A stretch of DNA of 28,634 bases, from contig CALSCQ010001024.1 in the NCBI GenBank assembly GCA_943704525.1, forward strand, positions 1 to 28,634, in the 5' to 3' direction. The notes beneath the pieces are model-generated. The model was not told the origin of the DNA, ran no database searches, and saw only the letters and a program-made list of their open reading frames with translations. Made by a program: the position numbers and the translations under genes. How positions within the stretch are numbered: position 1 is the stretch's first letter; the number at the start of each line of letters is the position of its first letter. Below, piece after piece: positions 1-28,634 of this stretch. The DNA comes from Pigoraptor vietnamica (Eukaryota; Opisthokonta; Filasterea).

Positions 1-115
1 AGTCGCGGCAGCTCGAGAAGACGAACGAGCAGCTCGCCGGTGCCGAGCGGTTCCTGCAGGTGTGTGATTGCACGCTGTTGTTGTTGTCTTGGCTTTCTCT
101 ATTATTACGTCTTCC
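1..115. repeat. Terminal direct repeat, left copy (identical to 28520-28634)
   Basis: Read base by base, positions 1-115 match positions 28520-28634 without a difference. The repeat holds the last 59 bases of a dynein coding exon and the first 56 bases of the next intron. Because it includes intron sequence and sits exactly at both ends, it is best read as the overlap left when a circular or tandemly repeated sequence is written out linearly, not as a biological terminal repeat. Confidence 0.97.
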
Positions 116-3100
116 CTATCAGGTTTTTCGGTTGTCGTCGCCGCGTTGGCCTTCACAACTCCGCGGCTCCTTTGCGTGCGTCTGACGCCGACCCCCAATC
201 CGCGCAGGTGCTCGCGGGCGAAAGCGCCAAGTGGCAGGCCCGCCTCGACGAACTCCGCGCGCGCGAGACGACGCTTATCGGCGACCTGGTCGCGGGTGTC
301 GCCTACGTGACATACCTCCCCGCCATCCGGCAGTCTGCGCGCCACCGCATCGTCCGCGAGCGATGGATTCCCGATCTCATCGAGAGGGGCATCCCGTGCC
401 GCCTCTGCCAGGCGCCCGACACAATCACCGACGTGCACATGGAGGAGCTTGTCGGCGCCCTCATTCACCTCGCGACTTCGGCGGCGGAAAGCGACGAAGG
501 GGGGGTCGCGGGCAACGACAGCCCCTCGCACCTGCACAGCCGCAAGCCGAGTGCGACGCGCGCCGAGAAGGGCTGCGCGCTCGCGGCCGAGAACATGGCC
601 CTGCTGAAGACGTGTCGCCGGTGGCCCATGCTGGTGGACCCCCACGGCCACGGCGTCGATTACATTCGCCGCAAGGAGGCTTCGGCCGGCCTGTTTGTCG
701 TCGATGCGTCGAGCGGACCGGCTGACCCGTCGATCCTCGAGACGGCCGTCACACTGGGCAAGCCGCTCCTCGTCGAGAACGTCGGCAGCACGCTCGACCG
801 CGTCCTCCTCTCCCTCGTCACGCAGACGTACCCGCCGCGCTCTGGCGACGACAGCCCCGACTCGACGCCGGTGGTTGTTGCGGGCGTTGAGCTGGAGCGC
901 GCCAAGGGGTTCCGCGTGTACCTGTGCACGCGCGTGGGCGATCCGCAGTTTGGGCAGGAAATTCTCTCGGTGACGTCCCTCGTCGACTGCCGCGCGTCGC
1001 CGGTCGCGTTTGAGCGGTGGCTGCTGGAGCACGTGTTCGAGCTTGAGAATGCCCAGCAGAGCGCGCGTCTCGTCGAGATTGAGAACCAGCGCGCCGTTCA
1101 CGAGGAGCGCCTCGCCGAAACGGAGGAGCGCCTGCTCGTTCACGGCCTTGGCGACGACAGCAAAGAGTCAGGCAACGTTGGGCAGTCGCGCGCCAACCTC
1201 GTCTCGTCGCCCTCTCGCAAGGTGCTGCGTCAGGGACAGAGCGTCGCTGCCGCCGTCGCCGCCGTCGCCGCCCACGGGCGCCTGTCCATTGTGGAAGACT
1301 TCAGGTCCGGCGGCGGACTGGCACCGACGGCGATGCTCGAGATTGAGGCGACGATCGGCGAGGAGGACGAGGAAGCCGCGAGCGTGCACGACCGCATTTC
1401 GAGCGCCGTCGTCATGAAGCAGGTGGAGACAGAGTCTCTCGACTCTCTGCTGGCCGAACAAGGCGGCATTATCCGCATGCGCGAACACTACCGCCCCGTC
1501 GCACAGCGCTGCGCGACGCTGTACTTTGCGGTCGACGCGCTGGACGCTCTGGGTCCCACGTACGCATGCACGCTTGACTCTGTGGTGTCGGCGACTGACG
1601 AGGCCGTGCGAAGCGTCCCCGCGGCTGCGGCTCCTGCTCCGAAGGAGGGTGAGAGCGCGCAAGATGCGGCGGACGCTGCCGTCGATGCACGCGTGTCGCA
1701 GCTTGTGAATGCGGCGACGTTGGCTGTGTTTCGACGGGCCGCGCTGGGCCTTGCCGAGAGCGACCGCCTCCTCTTCGCGGTCCACCTCGCGTGCGTGTGC
1801 GGACGCGAAGCTTCGCACCCGGAGAACATCGCCTTTGGAATCGACCTTCCCCTCCTGCTGCACGGCCCCCGCGCGCCCCCCATGTTGGCCGTGCCGCCAA
1901 TGCCCAAGGACTTTGCCGAGTGGCTCACGGCGGACGTGTGGACGGACCTCTTCCTCCTGTCGACGATCCCGCGCCATTCTGCGATCGTCCGCAGCGTCCG
2001 CGAGCGCCCGGCGGCCTGGCGCGACTGGCGCCTCTCGTCGCGGCCGGAGGAGAAGCCGACGCCGATCGAGTCGCCCGAGGGCGGCGCATCGACGCCCGTT
2101 TCTCCCCTCCACCGTGCGCTGATCATCAAGTACCTGCGCCCCGACCGCCTCGTGGCCGCACTCTCCGCGCTCGTCTCGCGTCGCCTCGGACCGGACTTTG
2201 TGGCGCCGGCGCCGGCGCCGTCGCTGCCGGCGTCTTGCGATGCGTCGACGCCCGTTCTCATCCTGTGCCCGAGCGACTCGGACTGCACAAAGCTAATCGA
2301 ATCGCTCGCCGCCGGCCGCACGCCCACCCGCATCTCGCTGGGTAATGGTCGCGTGGATGCCGCTGACGCCGCCATCGATGGGGGGAGCGGGCGCGGCGAG
2401 TGCATTCTCGTTGATGCGCTGCACGTCTGTCCCCAGTTTGCGACGTCGCTCGAGAAGCGAGTGCAGGCCTGGCGCTCGGTGCCCCCGAACCCCAGGTTCC
2501 GCCTGTTCCTCACGGCCGACCCCGCGCGGCTTACCGACGCCGTCGCGCATGCGCTGGCGTCTATTTCTGTGGTCATATCCGGGGATCCGGCCCGCAGCCT
2601 CCGCCGTGCGCTCGTCGCCGCGCTCGCAGTGTTCGACTCGCAGCAGTTTGAGGGCGCCTTCTCGTCGTCTCAGCGGCTGATGCGCATTGCGATTGGCCTC
2701 GCGACGATGCACGCGCTTCTCCGCACGCGCCGCCGCTTCGGCCGGCAGGGATTGAGCGACGAGTGCCCTCTGAGCGACTCGGATCTCGTCGCCGCCGCCC
2801 GGTTTGTGCTCTCGATGCCCAGCGACGGCCGCTGGTCGGACCTCCGCGGCGCCATCTGCGACGTCGTGTACGCGGGCCACTTCTCTGACGAGTGGGACCT
2901 CAACGTCTGCCGCTCGTACGCCGAGCTCTACCTTCGCGAGGAGATTATGCGTTCGGACTGGCAGCCCCTGCCTCATCTGCCCGTCCCAACCGGCGACACG
3001 GCGACGCTTGCGCAGTTTGCCAAGGCGGTCGAGGACGTGCTCCCTGCGGACGACGTGGCCGCGTGCTGGGGCCTCCCGCAAAGCGCCGGTCTCCGCGCCG

Positions 3101-4543
3101 GTCGTTCCATCGGCGCACGCATCCTCGCGCACCTCGTGTCCCTCTCCGAAGGGCAGGGGTCGCACGCGTCGCCAATTGCTCGCCAGTCGTCGTTCATCCG
3201 TCCCATGACGGGAAGCGTGGCGCGACAGTGGGGGCGCATAGCCCGCCCTCCTGCGCCGGCGCCTCCCACGCAGCCGCAGCCGCAAGCGAGTGCCGGTGCT
3301 GGCGATGCTGCGGTGCCCTCCGGACACAACGACCCCAGCAAGTCCCTGCCCCTCGAACGCATTCGCTCTCTCGTCGACGCCACGCTCGAGCGCCTTCCCG
3401 ACGCTGCGACTGTTCGCACCGACCGTCCCGTTGTGGCGCGCCCGCCTCCCCGCGCCCCGTCTCCGAAGCAGCCCGCGACGCCCCTGTCGCCGGCGGTGTC
3501 GAAGGCTGCGACGAGCGGCACTTCGTCCCCGTCGCGGCCGCCGCCCTCTCACGAGACCCGCCGGCACAAGCGCAGCTCTGTGGCGCAGGCGCTGAACCGG
3601 GAATGCGAGCGGATGGTTCGCGTGCTGTCTGTTGCGCGCTCGTCTCTGGAGACGTTGGACGCTTGCCTCGTGGGCAGCGTGCCGATGCACCACTCTGCGC
3701 GCGTGCTTCTCGATGCGCTGGCTGCGGAGCACACGCCGGCCGAGTGGCTTGCGGCTGCAGGCATGAGCGCGAGGGAACGCGTGAGCCTGGGCGCGTGGAT
3801 GGACGGTCTCGTTCGGCGTCATGCGCTGCTTCAGTTCTGGGCGACGTCGCACGCCCTGCCGCGCGTCCTCCCGCTGCCGGAGCTCTTCGACGTGCCTGCG
3901 TTCCTGTGCGCGTACATGCAGGATCAGGCGCGCGCGATGGCCGTGTCTGTTGAGGAGGTGTGTTTCTTGAAAACGCGTTGCGAAGCGGAAAGTGGTTTGT
4001 TTGAATTGATTCAATGTGCCGCATGAGTGGCAGTCGCATTTCCCCATCATCTCACTCTCCCCCGCCCCTCTCTCGACAGGTCGAGCTCCGCGTGGAGGTC
4101 ACCGAGAAGCACAGCCCACAGGAACTCCGCGGCGTGTCGGCGAGCCACGGCATCTTCGCGACGGGCCTTTACCTCGACGGCGCGCGCTACGAGGATGGCC
4201 GCCTTCGCGAACAGACATCGATGGACCGCCCTCAGCTGCTGCCGTACGTGCGCATCTCTGTCGCCTTGCGCGACAAGGAGGCTCGCGGCGCGTCGAAGCG
4301 GCCGGACGTCTTCGAGTGCCCGGTGTACACGACACGGGTGAGTTGTCGCTTTTGTGTGCGACTTGATGAAGCGTTGCGGCGTGTGATAATTTGGTGTGTT
4401 TGCCTGGTCTGTGTCTGACATCGTTTCGCGTTGGTGTGCAGGGTCGCGCCCACAAGGTCCTCTCGGTGGCGCTCAAGACCGAGTCGGTGCCGTCGTACAC
4501 GTGGACGCTGGCCGGAGCCGCGATCCTTCTGTGCGTGGAGTGA
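1..4543 (+). CDS. Axonemal dynein heavy chain, C-terminal part (continues the gene from the right end)
   Basis: This is the 3' portion of the dynein heavy chain that starts at 17272. It holds four exons: up to 59 (end of stalk coiled coil 2), 208-3957, 4080-4337 and 4442-4543 (stop TGA 4541-4543). Introns 60-207, 3958-4079 and 4338-4441 are GT-AG and phase 0. Counted from the start at 17272, these are residues about 3510-4897. In order they show the end of the stalk (AGESAKWQARLDEL), AAA5 (CRRWPMLVDPHGHG near 615-660, LLVENVGSTLD near 765), the strut coil (about 1045-1140), AAA6 with LRPDRL near 2134, the conserved DLRGAICDVVYAGHFSDEWD block near 2840-2900, and the C-terminal cap ending FATGLYLDGARYEDG, FECPVYTTR and ILLCVE. 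The C-terminal cap with its VEVT stretch resembles outer-arm beta chains (DNAH9/11/17). Low-complexity insertions interrupt AAA5 (about 478-560) and the C-terminal region (about 3241-3570, Pro/Ala/Ser rich). The family is certain; the subtype is inferred. Confidence 0.93.
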
Positions 4544-4859
4544 ACTGCCTACCAATCGGCTGCCTCGTTTAACAACCCTTTATGTGTGTGTGCGTGTGCG
4601 TGCGTGCACGCTATGTCCAACCAATCTTTCCACATGCGTGCCTGTCTGCGTTTTGTGTGCATTTTGTCTGTTTGCCAAGCCTTGCGTGCGTGCGAGCGTT
4701 GCGCTGCCACTTTGCGCTGCCACTGCGTCTTCTCACTAGAGCACAATATATTTGAATTTTGCACTGACGGCTTGCAACGACTTAAATCGGAAGCAGAAAG
4801 GGACTGGTACTGACATAAATGCAAACTCTTGGGTTGCTGTAAAAATAGCTTTGTGTCAA
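4544..4859. other. Downstream of the dynein stop; no gene seen
   Basis: This is the presumed 3' untranslated region of the dynein gene. It contains a short GT-rich run (about 4580-4605) and becomes clearly richer in A and T than the coding DNA. No canonical AATAAA signal was found close to the stop, and no tRNA or convincing open frame is visible. Confidence 0.5.
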
Positions 4860-6126: not shown

Positions 6127-6174
6127 CGAGAGCTGCCGTCAAGCTCGCCGCGAGAGCTGCCGTCAAGCTCGCCG
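6127..6174. repeat. 24-base tandem repeat, two copies
   Basis: The unit beginning CGAGAGCTGCCGTC occurs at 6127-6150 and again at 6151-6174 without change. As the length is a multiple of three it would add eight residues to any frame through it, but no gene is established here. Confidence 0.85.
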
Positions 6175-6647: not shown

Positions 6648-6682
6648 ATTCGCCGACCCTCTCCACCGGATTTTAATACGAC

Positions 6683-7541: not shown

Positions 7542-8251
7542 TTAGGCCTGGACGCCCAATTTGTCGAGGCACTTGAGGCCCTTCTCCTTGTACTCCTCGC
7601 GCGAGATCCAGAAGTTGTCCTTGTCCTTCATGATGTCCGCGAGCACGGCACCGCCGAGGAACACCATGTGCTTGCGGCGCGGGGGATCCTCGATGCGGAT
7701 CTTGAACTTCTGCGGGGCGCGGAAGGAGAGACGCAACTCAGCGCGTGTCCCAAACAGCATCGTGACGTGCCACAAAACGCTCGCAGGTGCATATATAGCG
7801 AAACGTTACAGCAGATTACAGCACTCGCAACAGCACGAACACACAGATAATAAGCAAGAACAATTGCCACCAACAAACGCAAAACAATCGATTCAAAGCC
7901 GCCACGCACCGAGAGCTTCGACGTGTCGCCCTTGAGCACGCGCTCGAGGTAGAGCTGCTTCATCTCGCGCTCGAGACGGCTGGGCATGCCGGGGTACATC
8001 GTCGTGCCTCCAGAGAGCACAATGTGCTTGTAGAACTCCGGGCGCGTGTCAATGTCGGCGGCCTGGATCGTGTTGAAGAGCATCTCGGCGACACCGGGCG
8101 ACTCGACGTTGATGAGGTGGGGCTGGAAGAGCGCCTCGGGGGCCTCGAACCGCTCCTGACCGACCTTGATCACGCGGCCGTCGGGAAGCTGTAGATGGGC
8201 ACGGCAAGCGCGTGAGTGCACACACGAGGCAAGTGCGCGAGTAGACGCAGG

Positions 8252-8295
<44 letters not shown>

Positions 8296-9912
8296 GTTGT
8301 GTGCGCGTGAGTGGGACGGAAGCCAGAAGCACATTAAAACAGGTTGCGGACGCTGACGTTCAAACGCACCGTGTACTCCTCGACGAGGACGGTCGTCTCG
8401 CGGGCGAGCATCTGCTCCTGGTCAATGTCATAGCTGCAAGGCGCACACACAAGGTCACTACAAAGTGCACCCGACAAACCAAACTTCTTATTTTCCCCAC
8501 GACCTCTTCCATCTCAGTGTGAAAGGCGCGCATGCATATCACGTATCGCGCGCGCATGTTATCCCATGGTGGCCCATGTGAAGCCTCTGTAGACAAACGC
8601 CCGACCCACCCGACGTAGCAGAGCTCCTCCTTGATCTGGCGCACCGTCTCAAAGTCGGCAGAGTGGTTGAAGGCGTACCCGCGCATGAGGAGCAGCTTGA
8701 TGAGGTACCGCGTAATGTCGCGGCCAGCAATGTCGAGGCGGCGAGTGAGGTGAGGAAGCGCAAAGCCCTCGTACACGGGCACAATGTGCGTGACACCGTC
8801 ACCAGAGTCGACGACCACACCGGTCAGGAGACCTATAAATGAGCGAGAGTGTCGCGTGTGAATCACTCGGTCGCAAGGCCACAACAATATAAAGAAGTAT
8901 GCGTCCTACCCAATGTCCCCCTACCCAATCTCCTTCCCCCAGCAAACACCACCACTTACGCGCATGCACGCACGCACGCAACACGAAGGCGCAAACCCAC
9001 CCTGAGCGTACAGCGTGAGCACGGCCTGGATGGCAATGTAGCACCCGGCGACGCCATACTTCTCGAACATGACCTCAATCATCTTTTCGCGGTTCTTCTT
9101 GGGGTTCATGGGCGGCTCGGTGAGCATGACCTTCGTCTGGCGCGTGTCCACCTTGAGCTTCTCGGAGAACGTGTAGTCCCACACGAGCTGCATGTCCTCC
9201 CAGCTCCGCACAATGCCGTTGTCCATGGGGTAGTTAATCTCGAGCATCGACCGCACGGCCGCAGCCTCGTCACCAATCATAATGTCCTGTTTGCGCACAC
9301 GGTCGAAACCAGCACATATTATTAGCATGGACGCATGTGCATTCCCCACAACAATGGTACTGCATTGAGCCGCAACTGCATCTCTCGAGCCAACATAACA
9401 GCAGCTCATTCAGCCGTGTTGCGCAAAAAATACATCGCAGTGCGCGAACGACAGAGAGAGGAACGCACCTTGATCACGACATCTCCGGGATTCGAGTCCG
9501 TGCGAAGGATGGGGCGACCCACCATCGACGGGAAAATGTGCGCGGGAAAGTTTGTGCCGGCGTAGCCGACCTTCACAAACTACGCAAATGACAAAAGGAA
9601 GGACAGCGTGCATTAGGGTGCTGGTGCTCAACAGCTCAACAGAAAACAGAGGAAGGCGGTGTGTGTGTGCGTGTGTGTGTGTTCGCATGCCGACGTCACC
9701 AATCATGAACTATAAACGAGATGGTAACTTCCTTGCTACGTGCGCATGCACGTGTGCGTGTGTGCATGGACACGCACGCATGCTATGAGCATGCAGACGC
9801 ACACGTACACACGCACACACGCACACACATACAAACAGTCGGTTTGAATCGTGACACACACCCCCGTGCCGTTGTCGAGCACGATGACCTTGTTGCCCTT
9901 CGCGTCCGTCAT
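7542..9912 (-). CDS. ARP2: Actin-related protein 2 (Arp2/3 complex subunit)
   Basis: ARP2 pairs with ARP3 as the pseudo-dimer that templates branched actin filaments. Seven minus-strand exons: 9912-9862, 9579-9469, 9286-9001, 8832-8610, 8433-8370, 8188-7910 and 7709-7542 (stop TAA 7544-7542). All six introns are GT-AG with compatible phases. The product is 393 aa against 394 in human. Visible are the start [17 protein letters not shown] with phosphate loop 1, phosphate loop 2 DSGDGVTH near residue 158, [15 protein letters not shown], the long conserved [20 protein letters not shown], the adenosine-binding [10 protein letters not shown] near residue 303, and the ARP2 end [20 protein letters not shown]. 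These diagnostic stretches separate it from conventional actin and ARP3. Unlike most exon-poor genes here it is heavily split. It lies downstream of IFT46 on the same strand with its own 647-bp spacer, so it is probably transcribed separately. Confidence 0.98.
8251..8287. repeat. GT microsatellite in ARP2 intron 5
   Basis: A nearly pure GT tract of 37 bases lies in the intron between the exon ending at 8370 and the exon starting at 8188. In the sense of the gene it reads as AC. Confidence 0.9.
9744..9835. repeat. Alternating GT/AC tract with GCATGC inverted repeats in ARP2 intron 1
   Basis: GCATGC occurs at 9744, at 9778-9783 and at 9789-9794, the last two as arms around a five-base TATGA loop. 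They are flanked by GT-rich sequence to the left (including 9657-9687) and AC-rich sequence to the right. The intron could fold into a substantial hairpin as RNA, or adopt Z-DNA or cruciform as DNA. Confidence 0.6.
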
Positions 9913-10559: not shown

Positions 10560-12500
10560 TCAGTCGACCGATCCCGCTGGCGAAGTGCTGCGAATCTCGA
10601 CACGGTCTGCAGAACGGGACAGCTTCTCGCCCTCCTCGGCCGCTTCCTTTTGCTTGAAGTGCTGCGAGTTCTTGAACTCGGAGAAGAGTGAGAAGAGGAT
10701 GTGGAGCGACTCGATCTTGCTCTTGTAAACGGGTATGTCGAGAATGGAGCACACAATCTCGACGTACTGCTTGATGTCGATATTCAAGTCGGCCGAGGGC
10801 AACGACAGCTGTCAACGATAATAACAGGGCCGACGTCAGTAACCTGGAATGCAACTGCAAGCACACAACTTACGCGCAACGCGGCGGAATGTGCTGCAAA
10901 CCCACGACGAAAAGCAGACACCCACCATCTTCAACATCTCCTCAAACTCCGGAGGCCACTCCTGCATCAGTGAGTCAATGTCCGGCATCCGCTTGGCATA
11001 GTTGACCGTTGCCGCGGGCTTTTGTCGGTGCAGTTCGGCGATCGACTTGATCCAACCGTCGATTTGCCGCGGGTTCTTCTCCGCGTGCTCAAGGGACCGC
11101 ACGGACATGGGCTGCGCGCTCGCCTGCTTGAGGAGCGTGCGAAGCTGGAGGTCCAACACCGTGGGATCCGACTGGTTCGCGCACGGCTCGTCCAGCACCG
11201 TCAAGCCCAGCTGCGACGGCTTGTCGTCAGGGCGGGAGACCTTGACGAACGCGTCAATGTCGCCGACGGCGGGAATAAAGTCGGGGATGAACGGGCGCAG
11301 GCGGTGGTCGAGCTCGAGCGAGATGGGCATGTAGCGCGTGATGTACTGAAAGAGCTCCTTGATCTCGGAACTGACGGGGAGGTGCTTGTACTCGTCGGGA
11401 TCGTAACCCCTGAAAGGGGACGGAGGCGGGCGGAAGTTAGCCGAGAAACAGACAAATGTGCGGGGCGCAAAACGTGAATGCGAGAAACGGACAAGTGTGC
11501 GGGGCGTAAAACGCGAATGCAGCACTATTGTTCAGACAAGCAATGATGCGACTGACAGATCGGCACAACACAGTCCACGCCACCTCCACGCACACCACCC
11601 ACAGTGCTGCAAAGCGGCGGCGCTTACTTTTCAACAGGCTGGTTCTTGGGCTCCCCCTCGTCGTCCCCATTGCCTTCGTCCTCCGACATGTGTGAGCGCT
11701 GCGAGTGGTTCCCTTCTTCTTCCTCCTCTTCCTCCTCATCGCGCTCGTCCCCGCGATACATGCCGGCGTGTCCGCGCTGTCCGTGCCCCGGACCCGGCCT
11801 CTCGGATCCCTTCGGACGGGAGGGCATCTGCACACACACAAGGGCACAAATCACGCGATGAGAACGGAGCATAGCATTTCCGTGAAAACCGCGATTGACT
11901 CGCGCGAAACACAACGTCTGAACACTCAACGTTTCATTTCCCCCCTCCCTTCCAACATTGCCCTCAAGAATTGAAATCGCACCTTCGGCATGTCGTCGTC
12001 TTCTTCCTCGCCGTAGTCGTCCTCGTCTTCATTGTCGGACATGGGCTCGGGCGGCGTGTCCCCGCGCATGTTGTGCCGTGCTGTGTTGCGATGCCCCACT
12101 CAGTGGCACGAATACGTACACATAGAGGACTCGAAAAGCGAATCGCGCGCGCAAAAAAAGGCGCCATTTGTAAATAAAACGCAATAAAACGACATTGCGG
12201 TGCCTACCCTTCCCGCCGTCGCCGCCGTGCCCGTGCCGTCCCCGCGGAGCCTCGTGCTTTTGCATGGGACTCGAAGAGGAGCTCATAATGTCATCCCCTT
12301 CACTCACATCGACCGCTTCGTCAAAGGGCTGGTTGGTGACAACCTTCGACTGCGACTCGATGTAATATAATAATGAGACGAGGCGTAAATACAGGCACTA
12401 TTGGCATGTACTGATGTGTAGGGCAGTGGCCGCGCCAACACACCTTCTTCTTGTCGCTCCTGCGGAATTCAATTTCGTCGTCGTCATCGCTTCCGAACAT
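10560..12500 (-). CDS. IFT46: Intraflagellar transport protein 46 (IFT-B complex)
   Basis: IFT46 is a core IFT-B subunit; in Chlamydomonas it is needed to bring outer dynein arms into the flagellum. Six minus-strand exons: 12500-12444, 12349-12208, 12080-11983, 11827-11628, 11409-10926 and 10808-10560 (stop TGA 10562-10560). Introns are GT-AG and phases agree, giving 409 aa. The first about 165 residues are low-complexity and acidic (MFGSDDDDEIEF, DEDDYGEEEDDD, a run of Glu), as is usual for the family. The conserved domain starts at GYDPDEYKHLPVSSEIKELF and continues with FIPDFIPAVGDIDAFVKV, LDEPCANQSDPTVLDLQLR, MPDIDSLMQEWPPEFEEML, ILDIPVYKSKIESLHILF and SEFKNSQHF, all typical of IFT46. The acceptor at 12350 is chosen as the nearest CAG; one six bases upstream (after GAG) would add two residues. 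The gene diverges from the secretory-protein gene to its right. Confidence 0.97.
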
Positions 12501-13026: not shown

Positions 13027-13321
13027 ATGGCGTCTCTGTCGGTGCGGGCGGCCGCGCTTGCGGCGGTCGTCGTCGCGTTCCTTGCGTTTGCAGGGACAGC
13101 GGAGGCCGGTTATTGCAGCTGCGGCTATGGGCAGTGCTGCGGCGGTTTCTTCTCGACGTGCTCCGTGTGCTACAAGGGTAAGAGCATGCCTGCTCTTATG
13201 CGGCGACTTGCGATTGTGATATCGATTCAGTATTGAGCAATTCCTATTTCTTGGTACAGGGGACTGGTATGGGCCGTATCTCACGAGCTGCACTTCTGGT
13301 GAGTTTCAGTCGTCGACGTAA
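13027..13321 (+). CDS. Small secreted cysteine-rich protein, possibly truncated at the 3' end
   Basis: The ATG at 13027 opens a classic signal peptide (MASLSVRAAALAAVVVAFLA, likely cleaved after TAEA), followed by a Gly/Cys/Tyr-rich mature part: GYCSCGYGQCCGGFF, STCSVCYK, then GDWYGPYLTSCTS, with seven cysteines in about 35 residues. Exon 1 is 13027-13177; a GT-AG intron (13178-13259) leads to exon 2 at 13260. Exon 2 either reads on to the stop TAA at 13319-13321, giving 70 aa, or is spliced at the good donor GTGAGT at 13299, in which case the rest of the gene is missing because the T run follows about 110 bases later. The splice phase there does not fit the phosphatase exons downstream, so the two are not one gene. 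Such peptides may be extracellular matrix or defence products; no family is recognised. Confidence 0.55.
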
Positions 13322-13409: not shown

Positions 13410-13410
<1 letters not shown>

Positions 13411-14195: not shown

Positions 14196-16656
14196 TCAAT
14201 TCTTCCACACTTCCGTGTCCGCGAGCGGCGCCTTTCCGTCCGCCATCAGCGGCTGCCTCAGCTCGTCCTGTTTGTTGGGCCCCGACGAAGATGACGACGC
14301 CGCACGCACGGAGCGGCGCGGCTGCTCGGTGATCCCGAACGAAGTCTGCGCAACCACCGGCGGCAGCGACTGCGACGGCACGTGAGCCTTGGCGTGGAGA
14401 GTGCTCGTCCCGACAGTGCCCCCGCCGACGTTCTGGACGACGAGCTCGAGCACGTCCTTGACTGTGTCGGGGAAGTGATCGCCTATCATGAGCGGGGAAA
14501 TGATGATCTTCGAAAAGCCCTCGCGGTCCGCCCACTCGGCGCGGTACGAGCGCCGGCGACCAAACGGAAGACGCCGCGAAGAGTCCGTCTTGACGAGATG
14601 GAGAATGCGACCGGGCATGTACATGCGCTCGCGGCGGGGCTCTTGCGCACGAAGGGCCTTGTAGCGCTGCAGAGTCGCGATGGGTTCGCTCTCGCGTGCG
14701 AGCTCGGGGTCTTCCGTGTTGACGGCGGCGTAGTCGGTGGTTTCCTTCGGATGCCCGACGATAAAGTTGCCGGCGATCACCTTCCACTTGGGACGCGGCG
14801 AAATTGCGAGCGCCTCCATCATGTCGTCGCGCATGCCCTCCGCGCTGTGAAACGACATGCGCGGGACGACGTCCTTCCCGACGACCAGCGAGATGCAGAA
14901 CTGCTCGGCGTACTTCGCGGCGGCCGCGTTCAACAGACAACCCGGCGGCGAATACGCGTAGCAGAACAGACCGGTGAATTCGGACCGCAGCAGCAGTGCA
15001 AGCAGCGTGCCCGTTCCGGCGCCGAGCGAGTGCCCAACGACCACCAGGCCGTATCCTGCGCAGGGGCTCCCTTCGCGGTAGAGGTCGGAGAGCACGCGAC
15101 GGTCCTCGAGGTCCTGCTTGATGCGCTGCGCCGCCTGCAGCATGCCCTTGTGCGCGTAGCACGGCTCTGACACGCCGGGTATCTCGATCGGCGTCTCGTA
15201 CGCCGTGAGATCCGTGAGGCAGTCGGCAAGGGACATGGTGCCGCGGACGGCGATCACGACGGTGCGACGCGCGTGGTCCACGCCCACGTAGTACGGCGTC
15301 TGGTAGAGACCGTTCAGGAAGCTCGCGTACACGATGTCGGCGTCGCCGAGGCCCGACTGCTTTTTCAGGGCGTCCAAGTTGCACAGGCAGCAGTTGTCGC
15401 CGGAAATCGGCACCGCGGACGTGCCACAGCACCCGCCCGTGCAGCAGCGGCAGTCGCAGACGTTCAGGCGCGGCACACCGGTGCACGGGTGCATGAACAC
15501 AAACAGGGGCCAGCCGTAAACGGCGAGCGCGTACTTGGCAAAGTAGTCGATTTCGAGGAGATCTAGCGCCTCGACCGAGTCCTTCGTGTCGAGGGCCTTG
15601 GCGTTTTCGGTTGACTGGTGAAAGCGACCGCTCGACGTCGTCGCGACCGACGCACGCAGCTGCTCGTCGTGCTTCTGCGCCTGACGCAGGAGAATGAGGC
15701 CCGCGATGAAGTCGGAGGGAACAATGTCGAGGTTCTTGAAAAAGTCGGCGAAAATGTTCGACACCTCTGCGTAGACAAGGCGCGACTCCTTCCCGACGCC
15801 GGCGCACATGCAGCACGAGCGGCAGTTCTCCTCCCACACGCGATGGTATTCCTCGCCCTGACGGAACTCCATCAGCTTGTCGTGCGTCGTCGCCTTCCCT
15901 CCGATGGGGTCGAAGAAGAAGTACGTCACGATGAGGTAAGAGCCGATGAAGATCCAGTTGCTAATCACCGTCCCCTTGAGCGCACGCAGCGGCGTCGAGT
16001 GAATCGAGTCGCACTCGAACCCGCGCGCAAACACCCAGTACGTCCCGAGACATGCCCAGAGGATTTCGAGGAGGTAGAGGACGACGGCGCAGTAGAGGAT
16101 CGAGGGGACGTGGTGGCGCAGACGCGTTTGCATGATGCTCCCCTTGCGCGAGTGGTGAATAAGCGCCATGTCGAGCAACATCGACACGCCGTACACGCCG
16201 ACGGCGCCGGAGAGGTATATCCTGAAGAAGAGATGGCCATCCTCGCAACCGTCGTCGAATTTCACGACCGAGAGAATGACGGCGTACGCGGCGCACCTGA
16301 AAGCGACAAAGAAATCGCTACTCTCAGCGCCGATCGCTCGAAAGGACAAATATTCGACGGCACGCACACACGCGCGCACACGCATATACGCACTAGCGCA
16401 CGCACTGGCGCATCACACACACACCACACGCACACACACACACGCACACGCATATACGCACTAGCGCACGCACTGGCGCATCACACACACACCACACGCA
16501 CACTCTCTCAGACACACACACGGTACACGCGCACACACAAAAACACACAAGGAAGACTCACCACAGCGAGCGGAGGACGAGCCCGATAATGCCCGGTATA
16601 ACAAAGTCGTCGGTCGCGCACTGCCACCGCCGCCCAAACAGAACGAGGGCCGGCAT
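14196..16656 (-). CDS. DAGL: sn-1-specific diacylglycerol lipase (DAGL)
   Basis: Membrane serine lipase that releases the sn-1 acyl chain of diacylglycerol to give 2-monoacylglycerol. Two exons: 16656-16562 and 16296-14196 (stop TGA 14198-14196), with a 265-nt intron, giving 731 aa. The start [20 protein letters not shown] parallels the animal DAGL start. Four hydrophobic segments follow (about residues 18-45, 70-90, 108-135 and 155-175), then [14 protein letters not shown] and the cysteine-rich DNCCLCN insert. The catalytic serine is in [10 protein letters not shown] (S455), the aspartate in VVGKDVVPR (D507) and the histidine in IGDHFPDTV (H639). The 52-residue Ser-Asp spacing equals that of human DAGL-alpha. 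The C-terminal tail is short, as in DAGL-beta, with a basic-serine stretch. The start codon is head to head with the dynein gene. Confidence 0.97.
16376..16504. repeat. 68-base minisatellite unit, two copies, in the DAGL intron
   Basis: The unit starting GCACACGCATATACGCAC is present at 16376-16443 and again from 16444 (61 bases matching). It sits in an AC-rich (GT in gene sense) intron. The units are identical where they overlap, pointing to a recent duplication. Confidence 0.9.
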
Positions 16657-18201: not shown

Positions 18202-18251
<50 letters not shown>

Positions 18252-21200
18252 CCTATTCGTTGCCATTGAGTCAGTTTGGTTCGGGCGGGTCCGTCGGTGT
18301 TCAGCCTCGCAACCGCGGGCACACACAGCCAGCGCATGCACCCCACATGTATGTGCGCTTATGCCTGCGTCTGCATTGGTTGTCGCAGCACGTGCTCAAG
18401 TCGGACGCCGAGTCCCTTGGGAAGGGCGGGCAGAACCCGGGACCGATGGCGCTCGTGAACTGCTGGCAGTATAAGTGCACGAACCTCTCGTCGCTCTCGG
18501 AGCAGATCCGCTCAGAGCCCATTCAGAGCATTCTGCGGACACTCGATGCCATGAAGAACACGTACGCCCCCGCCTTTCTCCGCGTGGCGAAGGACATTGC
18601 GCAGGCGCAGCAGCAGGCGAGGAGCGTCGTGACGTACCTCGTCGCGCTCGTGCCGTGGTTTGAGAAGCTCTCGGGGGAGGACGAGGTGCCGTTCGAGTCG
18701 CTCGCGGACATTTTCCCTCCCCTCATGCACACGGTCTACCTCGTGTGGATCAACTGCAAGCACTACTCGTCCCAAGGGCGCCTTTCGCAGCTCTTCAGGC
18801 TCATCAGCAACGACATTATCGCACGGACGCGCGCGTACGTGGACGGCAGGAACGTCCTCTCGCTGCCGATGTCGGAGGCCCACGCCATCTTGAAGACGGC
18901 CCTCCGCGTGTGTGCCACCTTCCGAGGCTCGTACCACGACCAGAAGTTGCTTGCGGACGAGTACCTCGAGCGCCTCGCCGAACAGGACCGCAGTGAGCAG
19001 ATGGGCGCGGGCATCCCCGGGGGTCCCATGCCCGTCGACGCCGGGCAAGCCGACAAAAAGGACCGGCCGGCGTCGTGGCCGTCGCGCGGCAGCCCCGCGT
19101 TCCAGCGCCTCAACGGCTTCATCGATCGCCTGCACGATCTGATGGACTTTGCGCAGACAGCGACGCATTTTTCGCGCCTGGACGGGCTCGAACTCGGGGG
19201 TCCCTCTGGCAAGGCGCTCGACGCTCTCATGGGCGGCCTCCACAGCGAATACCTTCGGCAGCACGAGATGGTGCTTCCCGCGGTTCGCTCGGTCGATCCC
19301 CTCGACGTTGACGCCGAGAACTCGCGGCGGGTGGACGAGTGCTTCCACCGGTTCCGGACGGGCGTGAAGGACCTCGAGCGAAGGCTGGCGGTTGTGGTGC
19401 GCGGCGCGTTTGAGAGCTGCGGCACGTGGGCAGGGTGGATGCGCCTCCTGGACGTGTTCGAAGGGCTCGTCGGGCGTGACGTCATGCAGCAGATGCTGGA
19501 GGACCGATTCGTGCTCATCATGCGCGCGTATCGCGCGGAGATCCACGCCGTGCGTCGCGAATTGCACGAGTACAGCGGGAAGGCGCCCCCCGCGCACCCG
19601 CAGATGCCCCCCATATCACGAACACTCCGCTGGCTGCGTGGATTGAAGGAGCGCGTCGAGGCGCCCTCGTCACGCATGCGCCTTCTCTCCAAGGCCGTCA
19701 TCGAGAGCGAGGAGGGCAAGGACGTCCTCACCGAGCTCAGCAGCCTTCTCGCGGAGTTTGAGCGCGCGGAGGCCGAGCAGCAGACACGCTGGGTGCACGC
19801 AGCGGACGGCATCTCGCAGCAGCGCCTCAAAGTGCCGCTGCTCGTGCGGGAAGAGGTCGCCGAGTCGACGCCGGCCGCTGACGGCGAGGCCGAGCACGCG
19901 GAACAGCAGTCGCGGGCACGCATTCGCGTGAACTTTGACCAGGAGCTCGTCGTGCTGATGAACGAGGTCCGGCACCTTGCGGCGATGGGCGTGCACATTC
20001 CGGAGAACGTGCTCGCGATGCACCGCAAGTGGGACCCGATCCACGGAATGATGTCCTCGCTGGAGATGGTGTGCGACGTGTACAACTGGATGCAGGAGAG
20101 CCTCCTCCCCGTCGAGCGCCCGCTCTTCCGTCGCCAGATGGACGAGATTGCGGTCCTGCTCCAGCGCGGGCTCGAGGAGCTCACGTGGAAGAGTTACGGC
20201 ATTCAGGAATTCATCAACGACGCGCAAATGCTTATCGTCAACGACGTCCACAAGGTCATGTCGACGATTCGCTCGAGCTACGTGCGCATCCAGCAGATTG
20301 TCGCCGCGTGGAAGGCCGGAGCCGGCGGGCTCTTCGCGCGCCGGGACCCCGGCAAGACGTACCCCGTCGCGAAGTTCGCCGAGGAACACCGCGCCTTCAC
20401 CGCCATCCACAACTACGAGATTTCCGAGTCTGGCGTGCAGATTCACGAACTCCTGCAGAGCATCAACGCCGCTCTCGGGATAAGCAGCGGCGCGCCCGCG
20501 TGGAAGGTCTATGTCGAGCACGTGCAGAGCATGATCCTCGAGGGGCTCGCCGACGCCGCCACCGCCGCGCTCTCCCTTATGCTGGACGCGCTCGAGCCGC
20601 CTTTGTCCACGACGCCGAGCACGCCGGGTTTGTTGGGACCATCGACGCGCGAGCCGCTGCTCGAGATCAAGCTGGAGCTCGTCGCCCCCGTCGTCATTTC
20701 GAATCCGCCTCTGGACGCGAGTGCTGGCCGCAGCAGCCTGAAGGACACGGTCATGGAGTGGGTCGAAGGGTGCGTGGGAATTGCGCGCCTCGTATCGCGC
20801 GTGGACGCCCACACGGGCGACTACTTTGCGGACACGTCGTCGTGCGAGAAGGTTGCCGAGCTGGTCTCGCGCATCTCGCGCGCCGTCGACGAGAACAACA
20901 CGCGCTGCCGCGCGTTCCAGGACTCGTTTGCGAGCGGATTTTCGTTCTTGTGGACGACGGACATCAACGCGTCGTTTGCCGATTTCATGACGGGAGGTGG
21001 ACGAAAGGGGCCGAAATCCGCCCCGCGACCCACGAGCGGGCTTCAACGCGAGCGCTCGCAGATGGCCGTGAACGCGCCGCCCTCGCTCGTTGGCACGCAC
21101 GTGTCGTCGTCGGAGGGCTCGTCGCAGCAGTTTACGCCGACGCTCGAGGAATTTGACGCGCGGATGGCAGAGTACAAGGCGATCGGGGACAACGTCGCCG

Positions 21201-24200
21201 AACTGCCCAGCATGTGCACCGTCGGATGGGTCCGCGTCAACGCGAAGCCCATCAAGCAGGCGCTGGCGACGTCGTGCACGAAGTGGATCTTCTCGTTCAC
21301 GAAGCACCTCATGGACGGCGTCGTCGCGTCGATCGACAGCACGGAGCAGTTTATCGCGCGCATGGAGTCTGGCGTCGACGAGCGCGTTCCGGACGGCGAC
21401 GTCGCGGCGTTCCTTCGCGTCATGGGGTTCATTCGCGAGTTCCGTTCGCGCATGGAGACGATCGACCGCAGCTTTGGCCCCATTCACCGCACTATTGGCG
21501 TGCTGCGCAAGTACGGGTACCTCCTCCCGGACGACCGCTTTGCAGCGTACAAGGAATCGCCGGCGCGCTGGGCGGCCCTCAAGCGCAAGGTGCTCGCCGC
21601 GAAGGAGCGCCTCGCACCCCGGATGCAGCTCGAGGCCGAGCGCATGTCGAAGGACCTTTACAAGTTTTCGGACGCCACGCAGCGCTTCCGCGAGCGGTTC
21701 CTCAAGGACGCGCCGTTTGGGCGTGAGTGGACCGTTGACGACGCCGTGCGTGCGATCGCGCGCTTCTCGGACGCCGTCACGCGCATGCGCCGTGAAAGCA
21801 GGGAGTTGATGGAGCTCCAGGAGCTGCTCGATTCGACGGTGAACAACTTTGCCGACCTCGGCGCGTGTGCGGAGGACCTCCGGCTTCTCGCGATCGTGTG
21901 GGACGTCGCGAAGAAGGTGCGCGCGGAGCTCGAGCAGTGGCACGCCATGACGTGGACGGGCGTCGACATTTCGGCGATGGTGGAGTCGGCAAACGACATG
22001 GCTGGGCTTGTGCAGCAGCTGCCGGCGCCGTGCGTCGAGTGGGACGTCGTGCGCGACATGGTGGACCGCGTGATGGCGCTGCGCGACGTGGCGCCCCTCG
22101 TCGAGCACCTGCGCTGCGACTCGCTCCGAGACCGCCACTGGAAGCAGCTGCAGCGTGCGACGGGCATCAAAATCCAGACGGGCGACCTCGTGGGCGACCT
22201 TCTCTCCCGAGGGCTTGGCGGTTTCGAGGCCGTCGTCGTGGAGGCAGTGACGCGCGCGCGGAAGGAGCTCGCGATCGAGCGGACCATCAAGGAGTTTGAG
22301 GACACGTGGTTGAGCAAGACGCTCGACTTTCACCGGTCGCAGTCGCTTCACGACGCGTCGTCGGAGTACGGTGGCGGTTCGTCCCTGCCGGGGGGATCGC
22401 GCCGCGTCGACGACTCGCGTGGGGAATTGCGCGCGCGCAAGGGTGGGAAGGGAGACCACGGGCGGATGGCGCGTACCGTGCCCGAGTCGGTGGGTTTGGT
22501 CAGATTTTTCACTCATCGTTTCGCTCTGCAAACTCTTTCATACCGTTGCGTCCGTTTCGTGTTCCTCGCTCACACACATCACCGCGTTTTTCTCCTCCAT
22601 AGGACGAGCTCTACGTGCTGTCGGACCCCGGTGGCCTCTTCGACACGCTCGAGTCGCATCTCGTGACGCTGCAGGGCGTGCGCGCGAACCGGTACCTCCC
22701 GTCGTTCGCCGACGAGGTCGCCAAGTGGGAGAAGCGCCTCCAGACGCTCGAGGTGGCGCTGCGCACGTGGATGTCGGTGCAGGAGGAGTGGGTTCAGCTG
22801 GAGGACACGTTCCTCGGAACGTCGGAGATGTCGGAAGAGCTGCGCGCGTCGCTCCCGCAGGACGCCGTGCTGTTCGGGTCGATCGATCGCGAGTGGAAGG
22901 ACCTGATGCGGATGGCCTATCGCAAGCCCAACATGATTGAGCTGTGCTGTCGCGAGGGGTTCGTGCACTCGCTCGCGCAGATGCACCAGGGCCTCGAGCA
23001 CTGCAAGCGCTCGCTCAAGCGGCACCTCGACCGCAAGCGCAGCGCCTTTCCGCGCTTCTACTTTGTGTCTGCGGAGGACATCCTCCGGATCGTCTGCCAC
23101 GGCCCCGTCCCAGCCGAGATCAACCCCTTCCTCCCGTCGCTCTTCGGCAACGTCTCGTCGATTCGCTTCGACACGGCCGAGCACGCGCAGCAGATGTCTC
23201 AGGGTGGCCAGGGCGCCGCCATCAGCCGCGTCGCGCTCGGCCTCTACTCGAGCGAGGGGGAGCTCCTGAAGCTCTCGAGTCCCCTCCAGTGCGTGGGTCG
23301 CGTCGAGCTGTGGCTGGCCGCGCTGTCTCAGGGCATGCGGGATGCCGTGCGTGCCGCCGTCGCCGACGCCGTGCGTTCGCGTCCGGCCGAGTCCTCGGCG
23401 CTGCTCAAGTGGGTCTCTGAGAAGATCTCGCAGGCGGCGGTCGTTGGCACGGCGGTCCACGTGACATCGGCGGTGGAAAAGGCGTTCCGCGTGATGGCGG
23501 ACGGAGGTTCGCGTGACGCGATGTCGGCGTGCCTCGCGGAGGTGCGCCAGAGCATTGGCGAGCTCTCGGCAGGCCTGGCGTCGGACGACATGCCGACGCT
23601 TCAGCGCTCCAAGACGCGCGCGCTTGGGCTCGTGCTGTGCCACGCCCGCGATGTGATCGGGGACCTCGTCGCGTCGGACGAGAAGGGCGCCGAGTGCTTC
23701 CGGTGGCAGTCGCAGTTGCGGTACGCGCTGCAGGATGAAGGCGAGACTGTGTCCGCATCGCTGTGCGGCGAGACGATCGCCTACGGTAACGAATATCTCG
23801 GCTGCGCGGACCGCCTCGTCCTGTGTCCCGCGTCGGAGCGGTGCCGCGTCGGCATTATCCTGGCGCACGCTGCCAACGCCGCCGCCGCCGTTGTTGGCCG
23901 CGCGACGTCCGGCAAGACGCAGACGGTGAAGGACCTCGGCCACGCGCTCGGTGCTCCCGTCTACTCGCTCGGATGCTCTGCGGGGACGGATTACCGCGCG
24001 ATCGTCGAGATGTATCGTGGGATGGCCTGCACCGGCGCGTGGGTGTGCATCGATGGCATTGACAGCGTCGGCGTGTCGGTGCTGTCGGCGGCGTCGACGG
24101 TGATTCGCGCCGTGCTGGACGCCGCCCGCAGCCGTGCCGAGTCGTTCTCGTTCTTCGGCGAGGAGCTCAGGCTGGTGCCCGGCGGTTGCTGCGTCGCCAC

Positions 24201-27200
24201 CGTCAACTCGCGCGGATTCATGGACGGCCTCCCCGCGTGCTCGCGCTCGCTGTTCCGCCCCGTCGCCTGCACCCCTCCTCCGCTCGAAGTGGTGGCCGAG
24301 GCGCTTCTCCTCGTGTCTGGCTTTGGCGAAGAGAGTGCGCTGATCGCGCGCAGGCTCGCCGTCTTCTACGACCTTTGCCGCAGGACGTTCCGCGCCTCCC
24401 CCGACGGGCTCGACTGGAGCCTCTCGGCCGTGCGCGGCGTGCTTGCGGCGGCCAGTCTCCGCCGTCGTGCGGGCGACAAGGGCGAGAAGGAGAGCGGCAG
24501 CTGCATCGTGGCGGCCGCAGCGAAGCAGTACCACCTTCCTGCTCTGACGGCGCAGGAAGCCGCCCTGTTCGCCTCCATTCTCAGCGATTGCTTCCCTGGG
24601 TCGGACGATCGCGTCGGCGCTGTGCCCGGGGATGGCGGCCAGCTGGAGCAGGCTCTGCGCGAGGCTGCTGCCGAGTTGGGCCTCATCCCGAAGCCCTCGT
24701 TTGTGCAGCGCGCGCTTGAGCTCGACCGTCTCCTCAACACGCGCCACGCTGTGTACGTCGTCGGACCGCCCGGGTGTGGCAAGACGTCGCTGCTTCGCAT
24801 GCTTGCGCTCGCAAACGCCAAGGTCGGCCGGCCCACCATCTCGCGCACGCTGCACCCGAAGGCCCTGGACGCGAGGGATTTCCTCGGGTACGTCCACCCC
24901 GACACGCGCGAGTGGACCGACGGCGTCCTCTCTGCGATGCTTCGCCGCATTGCGGACGAGCGCCGTTCGAACGCGTGCGAGGTGCGCTGGGTCGTGCTCG
25001 ACGCCGACGTCGACAGCTCGTGGACGGACTCGCTGGCCTCGGCGATGGGACCGGAGCGGGCTCTCTTCCTCGCGAGCCACGAGCGCATCCCCATCCGCGC
25101 CGACACGCGCATTATTGTCGAGTCGGACACTGTGAGGGCCGAGGACGCCGAGTGCATGGCGCACGCCGCCGTTCTGCGCATGTCGGCGGACGACGTCGGG
25201 TGGGCGATTGTGGCGGCGAGCTGGATCGACGCGTTCCCCGACGCGGCGCAGGCGGACGTGCTGAGGCCGCTCATGTGGGAATACGTGCCGCGCGCTCTGC
25301 AGTTCCTCCGCGAGCACTTTGCCAGCACGCCGTTTGTCGTTCCCACGTCGGAGATGACCATTGTGACGACCCTTTGCACGCTCCTCACCGCCCTCATGCC
25401 GGAGCTGTGCCCGAAGGGGTCGTCGGCCGCTTCGGTGACGTCGGTGTTCGTGTACGCTTCGATCTGGGCGTTCGGTGGGCTCCTCTCGGACGAGCCCCAG
25501 CGCGCGGCGGACGGCGAGGTTCCGCGCGCCGCGTTCAGTGCGTGGATGCGCTCGACGTTCGCGTCCATCGTGAAGATCCCCGACAACGCCGAGTGCTGGG
25601 ACTGGCACGTCCTTCCCGGAACGCCCGGGTTGTCGGTGATTTCGAGCACGGCGGTGTTTGCGTCGGGGTCGGGTCCGTTTGGCGCCGACGTGTTCATTCC
25701 GACCGCGGGAACGGAGCGCATGGGCGTGCTGCTCAACGCGCTCGTGGCGGCGGGGAAGCCGGTCATGTTCGTCGGCGTGGCAGGGACAGGGAAGACGTCG
25801 TTCATCCGCGAGCGCCTTCGTGCCTACTGCGCAGGCGACGACGTGCTGTCGAGCACGCTCACCGTCAACGCGTTCACGACGGCGCGGTCGCTGCAGACGA
25901 GCCTCGAACAGTCGTTTGAGAAGAACCCCGCGCGCACGCACGGCGTTCCCGACAACAAGGCGCTCGTCGTGCTCATCGATGACCTGCACATGGCCGCGGA
26001 AGACGAGCGCGGCTGCCGCTCTGTCGACGCGCTGCTGCGCCAGCACATTGACCAGGGCGGCTTCTACGATTACGAGGCACGCGCCTTCCGCGAGGTGCGC
26101 CACGTGAGGTACGTCTTTGGACTCAACATGCACAAGGGGGCCGCGTACCGCACAAGCCCGCGGCTGCAGCGACAGGTCGCCGCATTCTACGTGCCGTACC
26201 CTGGTGCCGACGAGCTTCATACAATGTTCTCGGCAGTGCTAGCGGGCTACGGCAGCGAGTCTGGCAGTGGCATGGCGACGGGTGAGATGGCCGATCGCCT
26301 CGTCCGCGCGACGGTCGAGCTTCAGGCGCGCGTGCGGGCTGCATTCCCACCCACTCGCGAGCGGCCGCACTACGTGTTTACGCTGCGAGATCTCGGCATT
26401 GTGATACGCGGCCTGTGCTTCTGCCGCCCCGCGCACTGCGACGCGATCGACGACGTGCGTCTGTGGCTGCACGAGTGCCACCGCGTGTACGGCGACCGCC
26501 TCGCGAGTGCGTCGGACATGTCCGTGTTCCAGCACATCCTCCACGAGACGGCGCGCAAGTACTTTTACGACTTCGACCAGGTCGCCCTCTTCGCGCGTCC
26601 GCTGCTCTTCACGTGCCTCGCGTCGGCGCCGGCGTCGATGCTCGCGTCCACGAGCGGCGGTCGCGAGGAGGCGCGGTTCCAGGCGATTGCGAACTACGAC
26701 CACCTTCGCCTGGTCATCACGGACCGTCTCGCTGAGTACAACGCAGAGACGGGTCGCCACATGGACCTCGTGCTCCTCGACGAGGTGCTCGAGCAGCTCT
26801 GCCGCCTGATTCGCGTTTTCCGCTTCCCCGGCGACAGCGGCAACATGGTTCTCGTTGGCGTCGGCGGCGCCGGCAAGCAGTCGCTCACGCGCCTCGCGGC
26901 GCACATGTGCGGCTTCAAGACGCACCAACTGCCCGCGGGCGCGCGGTTTGGCCTCGCCGAATTCCGTGCTGAGCTCGTGTCGCTGTACATTCGCACCGGC
27001 CTGCGCGGCGACCGCATCGCGTTCCTTGTCTCGGAGTCGCAGTTGGCGGAAGAAGGGTTCCTCGTGTACATCAACGACTTTCTCGCGAGCGGAATCATCG
27101 CGGACCTCTTCTCAGCCGAGGAGAAGAACGACATTCTCGTGGCCATCCGCGCCGAGGTCAAGCACGCCGGCCTGCTCTACAAGCGCGACGTCGCGTGGGA

Positions 27201-28634
27201 CTACTTCATCGCTAAGGTCCGCCGCAACCTCCGCTTCGTCATCTCCATGTCGCCCGGTCCCGAGCGGTTTGCGCAGCGTTGCAAGATGTACCCCTCGCTC
27301 GTGTCGGCGACGTCGGTCATTTTCTGCCAGCCGTGGTCGAAGCAGTCGCTCATTTCTATGGCCCACCACCACCTCGGGGACGCGGACGTCGGCGGTGCCG
27401 AGATGAGGGAGAACGTCGCGCACCTCATGGCTTCGATGCACCTCTCTGTCTCGGACGCGACGGACGCGACCGACCCGCTTGCGGTGAATGAGTACAACCT
27501 CGCGAACCACCGGTCGTATCTCGACTTTATTGGCCGGTTTGTGCACGCGATGGCGAAGCGTCGCGAGGGCATTCGCTCGATGCAGACGCGGCTCGAGGGG
27601 GCGCTCGCGCGGATCAGTACGATCACTGCCGGAGTGGCGAAGATGCGCGCGCAGGTGCGTTGTGTGCGTGTGTGTGTTGTGTGTGGGTGTGTGCTTGTAT
27701 ACGTGTACGTGCCCGCTTATATTCTCCGGTTCTCAACTTCCTGTGTTTGCTACGTACACCAGGTGGACCAAGAGCGGTCGCTCACCCTCGAGAAGAAGCT
27801 GGGCACGGAGAAGCTCCTTGCTCAAATCGGCCAGGACCTTGCGCTCGTCGAGGACCAGAAGGCGCTCGCCGTTCTCGAGGAGGGCCGCCTTTCGCAGCTT
27901 GAAGCAGAGGCAGCGCAGCACTCTGCCGCATACGACACGGAGATCGCGGCGGCGGATGCCTACGCGCACGCGGCGGACGCAGCACTCGCGCGCGTCGACC
28001 GCAACCACCTCGCCGAGCTGCGCACGATCCAGAAGCCGCCGCACGAGGTCGCCGAGCTTCTCGCGGCGTTTGTCCTGCTGACTTCGCCGGGGAAGGGCGC
28101 GACGGCGGACCTGTCGTGGGCGGGCGCGCGCAAGGCCCTCACAAACGCCGACCGCTTCATCGACGCGATGGTGAAGTTTGACCGCAAGGTGATACCAGAG
28201 CAGAACATCGCGGCAGTGATGCCGTACGTTGAGCGCGCTGCAGAGGCCATCGCCGCTGGCAACACGATGGACGGGACGGAAGAGCTCGCGTGCAAGCCCA
28301 CGATTCTCGCCCTGCGCGAGTGGATCGTGAACGTCGTCGGTTATAACGGGCTGTACGTTCGCGCGGCGCCCGTGCTCCAGCGGCTGACGAACGCGCGCGA
28401 CGCCCTGGACGCCGTCAAGTCCAAGGTCGCCGCGATTCACGCGAAGGTGGGCGAGCTCGAGAGCCGCATCAAGGGGCTCGCGGTGTCTTTTGAGGGCGCG
28501 TCGAGCGAGAAGCGCCTGCAGTCGCGGCAGCTCGAGAAGACGAACGAGCAGCTCGCCGGTGCCGAGCGGTTCCTGCAGGTGTGTGATTGCACGCTGTTGT
28601 TGTTGTCTTGGCTTTCTCTATTATTACGTCTTCC
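17272..28634 (+). CDS. Axonemal dynein heavy chain, N-terminal tail to stalk (outer-arm beta-like); runs off the right end and resumes at 1
   Basis: Motor heavy chain of the flagellar axoneme. Exons: 17272-17375, 17494-17848, 18029-18184, 18389-22489, 22603-27654 and 27763-28578; all introns are GT-AG. With the left-end exons the protein is about 4,897 aa, longer than the usual 4,400-4,600. The start MEPDGRIRWIESRV, then SLLLEFF and VALGQTKGETLLPMP, resembles DNAH9/11/17 tails. The linker spans the exon 4/5 junction (PRFYFVSAEDILRI near 23055). P-loops are readable for AAA1 (GRATSGKT, residue about 2004), AAA2 (GPPGCGKT, about 2293), AAA3 (GVAGTGKT, about 2630; Walker B VVLIDDLH) and AAA4 (GVGGAGKQS, about 2991). 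Stalk coil 1 starts near 27540 and the microtubule-binding domain lies near 28110-28370. AAA1 is abnormal: Walker B reads AWVCIDGIDS instead of the usual CFDEFNR, and sensor I reads ATVNSRGF instead of ITMNPGYAG. The AAA2 segment that is normally SPATVSRCGM is unrecognisable. The gene is divergent from the lipase gene, sharing a 615-bp upstream region. Confidence 0.94.
18185..18250. repeat. GT microsatellite starting at a splice donor (dynein intron 3)
   Basis: The tract begins at the first base of the intron and continues, with small interruptions, for about 66 bases. The intron (18185-18388) is 204 nt, a multiple of three, and has no stop in the coding frame. Confidence 0.9.
28520..28634. 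repeat. Terminal direct repeat, right copy (identical to 1-115)
   Basis: This is the second copy of the 115-base end overlap. Removing one copy gives a unique length of 28,519 bp. The reading frame of the dynein stalk exon crosses the join without a change, and the intron that begins at 28579 is completed at the left end (60-207). Confidence 0.97.

What the first reader, a model, noticed from the sequence alone, without database searches (positions are those of the whole stretch)
1..28634. The sequence closes on itself: a 28.5-kb circle (or tandem unit) of nuclear genes
The first and last 115 bases are identical. A dynein heavy chain gene leaves the right end in stalk coiled coil 2 and resumes at the left end at the next residue, with one intron spanning the join (GT at 28579 or 60, AG at 206-207). 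Domain order is canonical only when the ends are joined. A circle of 28,519 bp carrying at least three complete split genes (dynein, DAGL, IFT46) plus ARP2 would be an extrachromosomal circular DNA or minichromosome. The alternatives are a collapsed tandem array, or a linear locus falsely closed elsewhere.
Basis: seen in the sequence. Interest (0 to 1): 0.9.

Follow-up and report, generated by a model that had tools for sequence, protein, structure and literature searches.

The report
Linear gene locus assembled as circle
This stretch of ordinary nuclear genes looks circular because of how it was assembled: its matching ends are the assembler's word length, and its real seam is a run of T's where halves of two different genes meet.

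Summary
The first and last 115 bases are identical, and one dynein heavy chain gene reads across that join. The 115 bases are not biology: other contigs of the assembly also share exactly 115 bases at their ends, and no T-run exceeds 114, so the assembler's k was 115. The contig is a cycle in a de Bruijn graph, cut at an arbitrary point inside the dynein gene.

The real seam is a 59-T run at 13411-13469. To its left a small Cys-rich gene breaks off in an intron; to its right a pseudouridine-5'-phosphatase-like (HAD) gene begins in mid-gene, in a different intron phase. The missing first half of that HAD gene ends contig C773 at a 111-T dead end, in matching phase; the joined protein aligns nearly end to end with solved PUDP structures. 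So the locus continues linearly into C773.

What made the 59-T joint is not settled. My order: a technical joint between two intronic T-tracts (0.5), a recent tandem duplication collapsed into one unit (0.33), an excised circle beside the chromosomal copy (0.12). Only reads can decide. A self-standing minichromosome as the sole copy is very unlikely.

The parts
1..115 (.). Left copy of the 115-base terminal identity (inside the dynein gene): k-length overlap of a graph cycle
28520..28634 (.). Right copy of the 115-base terminal identity
13411..13469 (.). Run of 59 T: the seam that closes the cycle
13027..13298 (+). 5' part of a small Cys-rich gene with a signal-peptide-like start (judged by eye; exons 13027-13177 and 13260-13298, leaving in phase 1); its continuation is missing after the T run
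   Evidence: no Pfam match; own-genome protein search at E <= 10 finds only these two exons
13519..14136 (+). 3' part of a HAD hydrolase / pseudouridine-5'-phosphatase-like gene (exons 13519-13638, 13742-13758, 13851-13927, 14068-14136 with stop; entered in phase 2); its 5' part is on contig C773 (exons 10422-10538 and 10650-10945)
   Evidence: one search printed the last exon one base short of the stop
18551..22498 (+). Dynein heavy chain, N-terminal part (DHC_N1, start of DHC_N2)
22603..28578 (+). Dynein heavy chain, DHC_N2 to stalk, ending at the intron donor at 28579 (= 60)
208..4023 (+). Dynein heavy chain continuation after the intron acceptor at 206-207: AAA_9 to Dynein_C
14199..16412 (-).
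10839..11531 (-). Open frame with the IFT46 C-terminal domain
7631..9409 (-).

Best explanation
An ordinary stretch of linear nuclear chromosome that a de Bruijn assembler (k = 115) represents as a cycle. Linear order: contig C773 (first half of the HAD gene), a poly-T tract of at least 111, window 13470 to 28519, window 1 to 13410, a second intronic poly-T tract, then an unidentified contig with the rest of the Cys-rich gene. Shown: what the 115 bases are, the seam between two truncated genes, and the fit of the HAD halves. Inferred: the second native tract (its far side was not found), and that the 59-T joint between the two tracts is technical (chimeric or template-switched reads, or a graph error at the T tracts) and not a joint in the organism's chromosome.
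For: k = 115: contigs C1200 and C1330 start with exactly the same 115 bases and then differ; the ends of C240 and C776 overlap head to tail by exactly 115; the window's two ends do the same. The longest T-run in the assembly is 114 = k-1, among 15 contigs with runs of 108 or more (all 57 rows listed). Seam: a gene part on each side of 13411-13469, in introns of different phase, 1 and 2. C773 ends with the HAD 5' half, leaving in phase 2, followed by an intron start and T111 at the contig end. The joined 231-aa protein aligns over residues 5-227 with pseudouridine-5'-phosphatase (9m7l, E 4.4e-42) and HDHD1A (3l5k, E 6.1e-42). The two halves match complementary parts of HAD_2, profile 1-111 and 131-178 of 178. 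Of 7 HAD_2 matches listed in the assembly, only C773's covers the N-terminal half. The seam flanks were found nowhere else. 59 lies within the T-run lengths of six contig ends that begin directly in T and go on into flank (47, 48, 48, 52, 61, 66), though the last of these, C776, is a 115-base overlap with C240. CheckV (PMC8116208, passages seen) reads odd-length terminal repeats in assembled contigs as likely k-mer lengths.
Against: T-runs shorter than k can be joined correctly here. Of 5 runs tested out of 30 fetched loci, 3 join consecutive parts of one gene (T50 anoctamin and T78 tyrosine kinase; T68 axonemal dynein contiguous with DNAH5), 1 is consistent (T38, spectrin repeats on both sides, below Pfam's cut-off, order not testable) and 1 is inconclusive (T74 RasGAP). 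I chose these five because the exons looked like one gene on both sides, so this sample could not have shown false joins and is no error rate. A 59-T joint is well inside what k = 115 can carry, so it should be present in reads, which favours a real molecule. The contig with the rest of the Cys-rich gene was not found. The HAD_2 search is exon by exon and did not list the window's own HAD exons, so N-terminal exons of other HAD genes may have been missed too. No reads were available. 0 of 20 other sampled contigs close on themselves by 115 (18 testable at both ends, two start in N), so such closures are not common.
Confidence: 0.5

Rival explanations
1. Collapsed tandem duplication. Unequal recombination between two long intronic poly-T tracts 28.5 kb apart duplicated the segment head to tail; the new inner joint has 59 T's and was assembled, while the two outer joints exceed k and were not, so two identical copies collapse into an isolated cycle.
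For: Explains why the inner joint assembles and the C773 side does not: T-runs at inner positions up to 109 are assembled, none anywhere is longer than 114. Three of five tested T-run joints are clearly genuine, though the five were chosen for looking so. The HAD 5' half on C773 is then the chromosomal left edge.
Against: No copy-number evidence; copies must be identical over 28.5 kb; the right outer edge was not found.
Confidence: 0.33
2. Extrachromosomal circular DNA excised by recombination between the two T-tracts, coexisting with the chromosomal copy that continues into C773.
For: Recombination between direct repeats would leave one tract at the joint, as seen; the sequence forms a clean cycle.
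Against: Same sequence signature as the technical joint and the tandem unit. The eight window open frames scanned with Pfam match only ordinary cellular families (other frames of the window were not scanned, apart from the two gene parts at the seam). Needs high abundance to be assembled.
Confidence: 0.12
3. A self-standing circular minichromosome that is the only copy of these genes.
For: Only the cycle itself.
Against: It would leave two genes broken at 13411-13469; the HAD gene's other half lies on C773 in matching phase; the terminal repeat equals k.
Confidence: 0.02

Closest known systems
Direct terminal repeats equal to k in assembled contigs (CheckV, PMC8116208, extended-data legend seen)
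   Same: Exact odd-length terminal identity, equal to the assembler's k, in a contig cut at a place that is not itself a genomic repeat.
   Different: There the template is mostly a real circular or permuted genome; here the cycle carries nuclear genes, a seam at a poly-T run, and has a linear neighbour.
Collapsed tandem duplication in short-read assembly (recalled)
   Same: Head-to-tail joint, a cycle in the graph, and outer flanks on other contigs.
   Different: Copy number not known here; one outer flank found (C773), the other not.
Gene-bearing eccDNA of eukaryotes (for example the Magnaporthe oryzae study PMC9694575, seen only as search listing and start of abstract)
   Same: Would carry chromosomal genes and a joint between two chromosomal positions.
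   Different: No circle-enriched sequencing, copy number or exonuclease test here.

Membership tests
k-length overlap of a de Bruijn graph cycle | Terminal identity equals the k shared by other contig ends of the same assembly | tested here: met
   115 in C1200/C1330, C240/C776 and the window; no T-run above 114
k-length overlap of a de Bruijn graph cycle | The identical ends are otherwise unique sequence, not a genomic repeat | tested here: met
   Own-genome search with window 1-1000 finds only C408:1-1000 and 28520-28634
Linear locus wrongly closed | A seam between unrelated gene parts, with a missing part on another contig | tested here: met
   HAD 5' half on C773, phase 2 into phase 2; joined protein matches PUDP over residues 5-227 of 231
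Linear locus wrongly closed | Both outer neighbours identified | tested here: inconclusive
   C773 found; neighbour beyond the Cys-rich gene not found in an incomplete look
Collapsed tandem duplication | Read depth at least twice single copy | not testable with these tools
   No reads held
Extrachromosomal circular DNA | Joint present in reads, and circular topology shown independently of assembly | not testable with these tools
   No reads or exonuclease data held
Self-standing minichromosome | All genes on it intact, no chromosomal continuation | tested here: not met
   Two gene parts meet at 13411-13469; continuation into C773

The most novel reading that the evidence does not exclude
Two long intronic poly-T tracts 28.5 kb apart in the same orientation recombined in this organism, giving a head-to-tail unit (tandem copy or excised circle) that carries dynein, lipase, IFT46 and actin-family genes beside the chromosomal copy. 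Homopolymer tracts of 100 or more would then act as recombination sites for gene-sized copy-number change.
Probability: 0.42. Interest if true: 0.4.

Novelty: not a real feature. Interest (0 to 1): 0.15.

Why it matters
Mostly as a caution: a perfect terminal overlap and an intact gene across the join can look like proof of a circle, yet the informative place is elsewhere in the contig, where two gene parts meet. The same test (find the other half of a broken gene on another contig) can be used on any eukaryotic contig that seems circular. If reads support the 59-T joint, it becomes a case of poly-T-mediated duplication or excision.

Tried and rejected
Chance: an exact 115-base terminal match in otherwise unique coding sequence is not chance. 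A seam at 28634/1: rejected, the dynein gene is continuous there. One spliced gene running through 13411-13469: rejected as a way to read the HAD frame, because the Cys-rich exons leave in phase 1 and the HAD exon is entered in phase 2. In the phase that the Cys-rich exons would use, the exon after the seam is open but does not read as HAD (third frame); the fusion test inside one search was one base off and is not used. T-runs as tails of one repeat family: the flanks listed look unrelated by eye. An artefact with run length equal to an earlier k of 59: only 1 of 71 measured run rows is 59 (31 rows, 40). A general failure at T-runs: 3 of 5 tested joints are clearly genuine, but the five were picked from 30 loci for looking like one gene.

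Search for the other outer neighbour: ten contigs with a T34+ run at, or within 8 bases of, the needed end (C60, C327, C319, C472, C748, C1029, C1330, C776, C1055, C586) show, by eye, no Cys-rich continuation. Not covered: runs shorter than 34; runs followed by A beyond C825 (the list was cut; complete it for G and C only); and reverse-strand hits whose contig length I did not look up (those at low positions, those with a later hit on the contig, and C1196). No Rfam family at its gathering score and no tRNA by ARAGORN in the window. Papers: searches; only CheckV was opened, as passages.

Full report
What was claimed.

Check. The window is the whole of contig C408 in a 32.5 Mb assembly of 1395 contigs. 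The terminal identity is exactly 115 bases, and an own-genome search found those bases only at the two ends. The dynein gene crosses the join by one intron, donor at 60 (= 28579) and acceptor at 206-207, in frame. Pfam domains run DHC_N1 to Dynein_C in canonical order only with the ends joined.

What the 115 bases are. I compared 57 contig ends with each other (55 from other contigs, two from the window; not every end that I had fetched). C1200 and C1330 start with the same 115 bases and then differ. The ends of C240 and C776 overlap head to tail by exactly 115. Two ends in GT repeats (C350, C1260) share 115. The window's own ends give 115. The other matches of 40 or more were simple repeats. 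A search for T-runs of 108 or more found 15 contigs, the longest run being 114. An assembler with k = 115 explains this: adjacent contigs share k bases, and no homopolymer of k or more is written out. The window is therefore a cycle in the graph, cut at an arbitrary place. CheckV describes this footprint (PMC8116208, passages). None of 20 other contigs sampled at both ends closes on itself by 115; two of them start in N, and one has a GT-repeat overlap of up to 27.

Where the seam is. A run of 59 T's lies at 13411-13469. To its left are two exons of a small Cys-rich gene with a signal-peptide-like start, leaving in phase 1. To its right an intron ends at 13518 and the reading continues as the C-terminal part of a HAD hydrolase, entered in phase 2. 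Splicing the two would not read the HAD frame, although the exon stays open in the other phase.

Where the missing half is. A HAD_2 search of the assembly gave 7 matches, exon by exon; only one covers the N-terminal half: C773, near its end. The window's own HAD exons were not among the 7, so the list is not complete. C773 carries two exons of a HAD gene from its ATG, leaving in phase 2, then a GT intron start and T111 as the last bases of the contig. Joined to the window's exons they give a 231-residue protein that aligns over residues 5-227 with pseudouridine-5'-phosphatase (9m7l) and HDHD1A (3l5k), E 4.4e-42 and 6.1e-42 (that both are the human protein is recalled). The halves match complementary parts of the HAD_2 profile. 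C773 is thus the likely linear neighbour of window 13470.

What made the joint. Three readings remain. A technical joint between two intronic T-tracts is my first choice at 0.5. Against it, T-runs can be joined correctly here: of five runs tested, three join consecutive parts of one gene (anoctamin, tyrosine kinase; axonemal dynein), one is consistent (spectrin repeats, below cut-off) and one is inconclusive (RasGAP). These five were picked from 30 loci because they looked like one gene on both sides, so they give no error rate. A joint of 59 T's is also short enough to be carried by reads at k = 115. A recent tandem duplication by recombination between the tracts would give exactly this picture, since the outer joints exceed k (0.33), and so would an excised circle beside the chromosomal copy (0.12). 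T-run lengths do not separate these: 59 fits both runs in the loci read (34-98; up to 109 at an inner position of C517) and contig ends that begin in T (47-66).

What is missing. I did not find the contig with the rest of the Cys-rich gene, in a look that was not complete. No reads were available. The organism is not identified (searches failed).

Verdict. It is a linear locus closed at a poly-T seam, by a technical joint or by a collapsed duplication. Ordinary, with a residual chance of poly-T-mediated recombination.

Noticed in passing
assembly-wide (contigs of G000): Contig ends that stop in long T-runs favour one orientation: the 7 contig ends that I could verify with runs of 108 or more (of 15 such runs) are all flank-then-T, and T34 preceded by a non-T outnumbers T34 followed by a non-T, 192 to 156. 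Perhaps a strand-dependent sequencing failure.
   Followed up: partly
13742-13758: A 17-base micro-exon is needed to complete the HAD gene; with it the protein keeps the length of the PUDP sequence at this point.
   Followed up: partly
L066 (C191): Receptor-like tyrosine kinase exons with an HKDLAARN motif in a genome that also has flagellar genes; by recall this hints at a choanoflagellate or related holozoan, not tested.
   Followed up: no
1-4000 and 19001-28000 versus 4001-19000: G+C per 1000 bases is 63-70% over most of the dynein gene and 50-64% over the rest of the window.
   Followed up: no
6550-6803: An imperfect direct repeat with about 170-base spacing (families D7 and D8, 84% and 92% identical) of unknown nature.
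   Followed up: no
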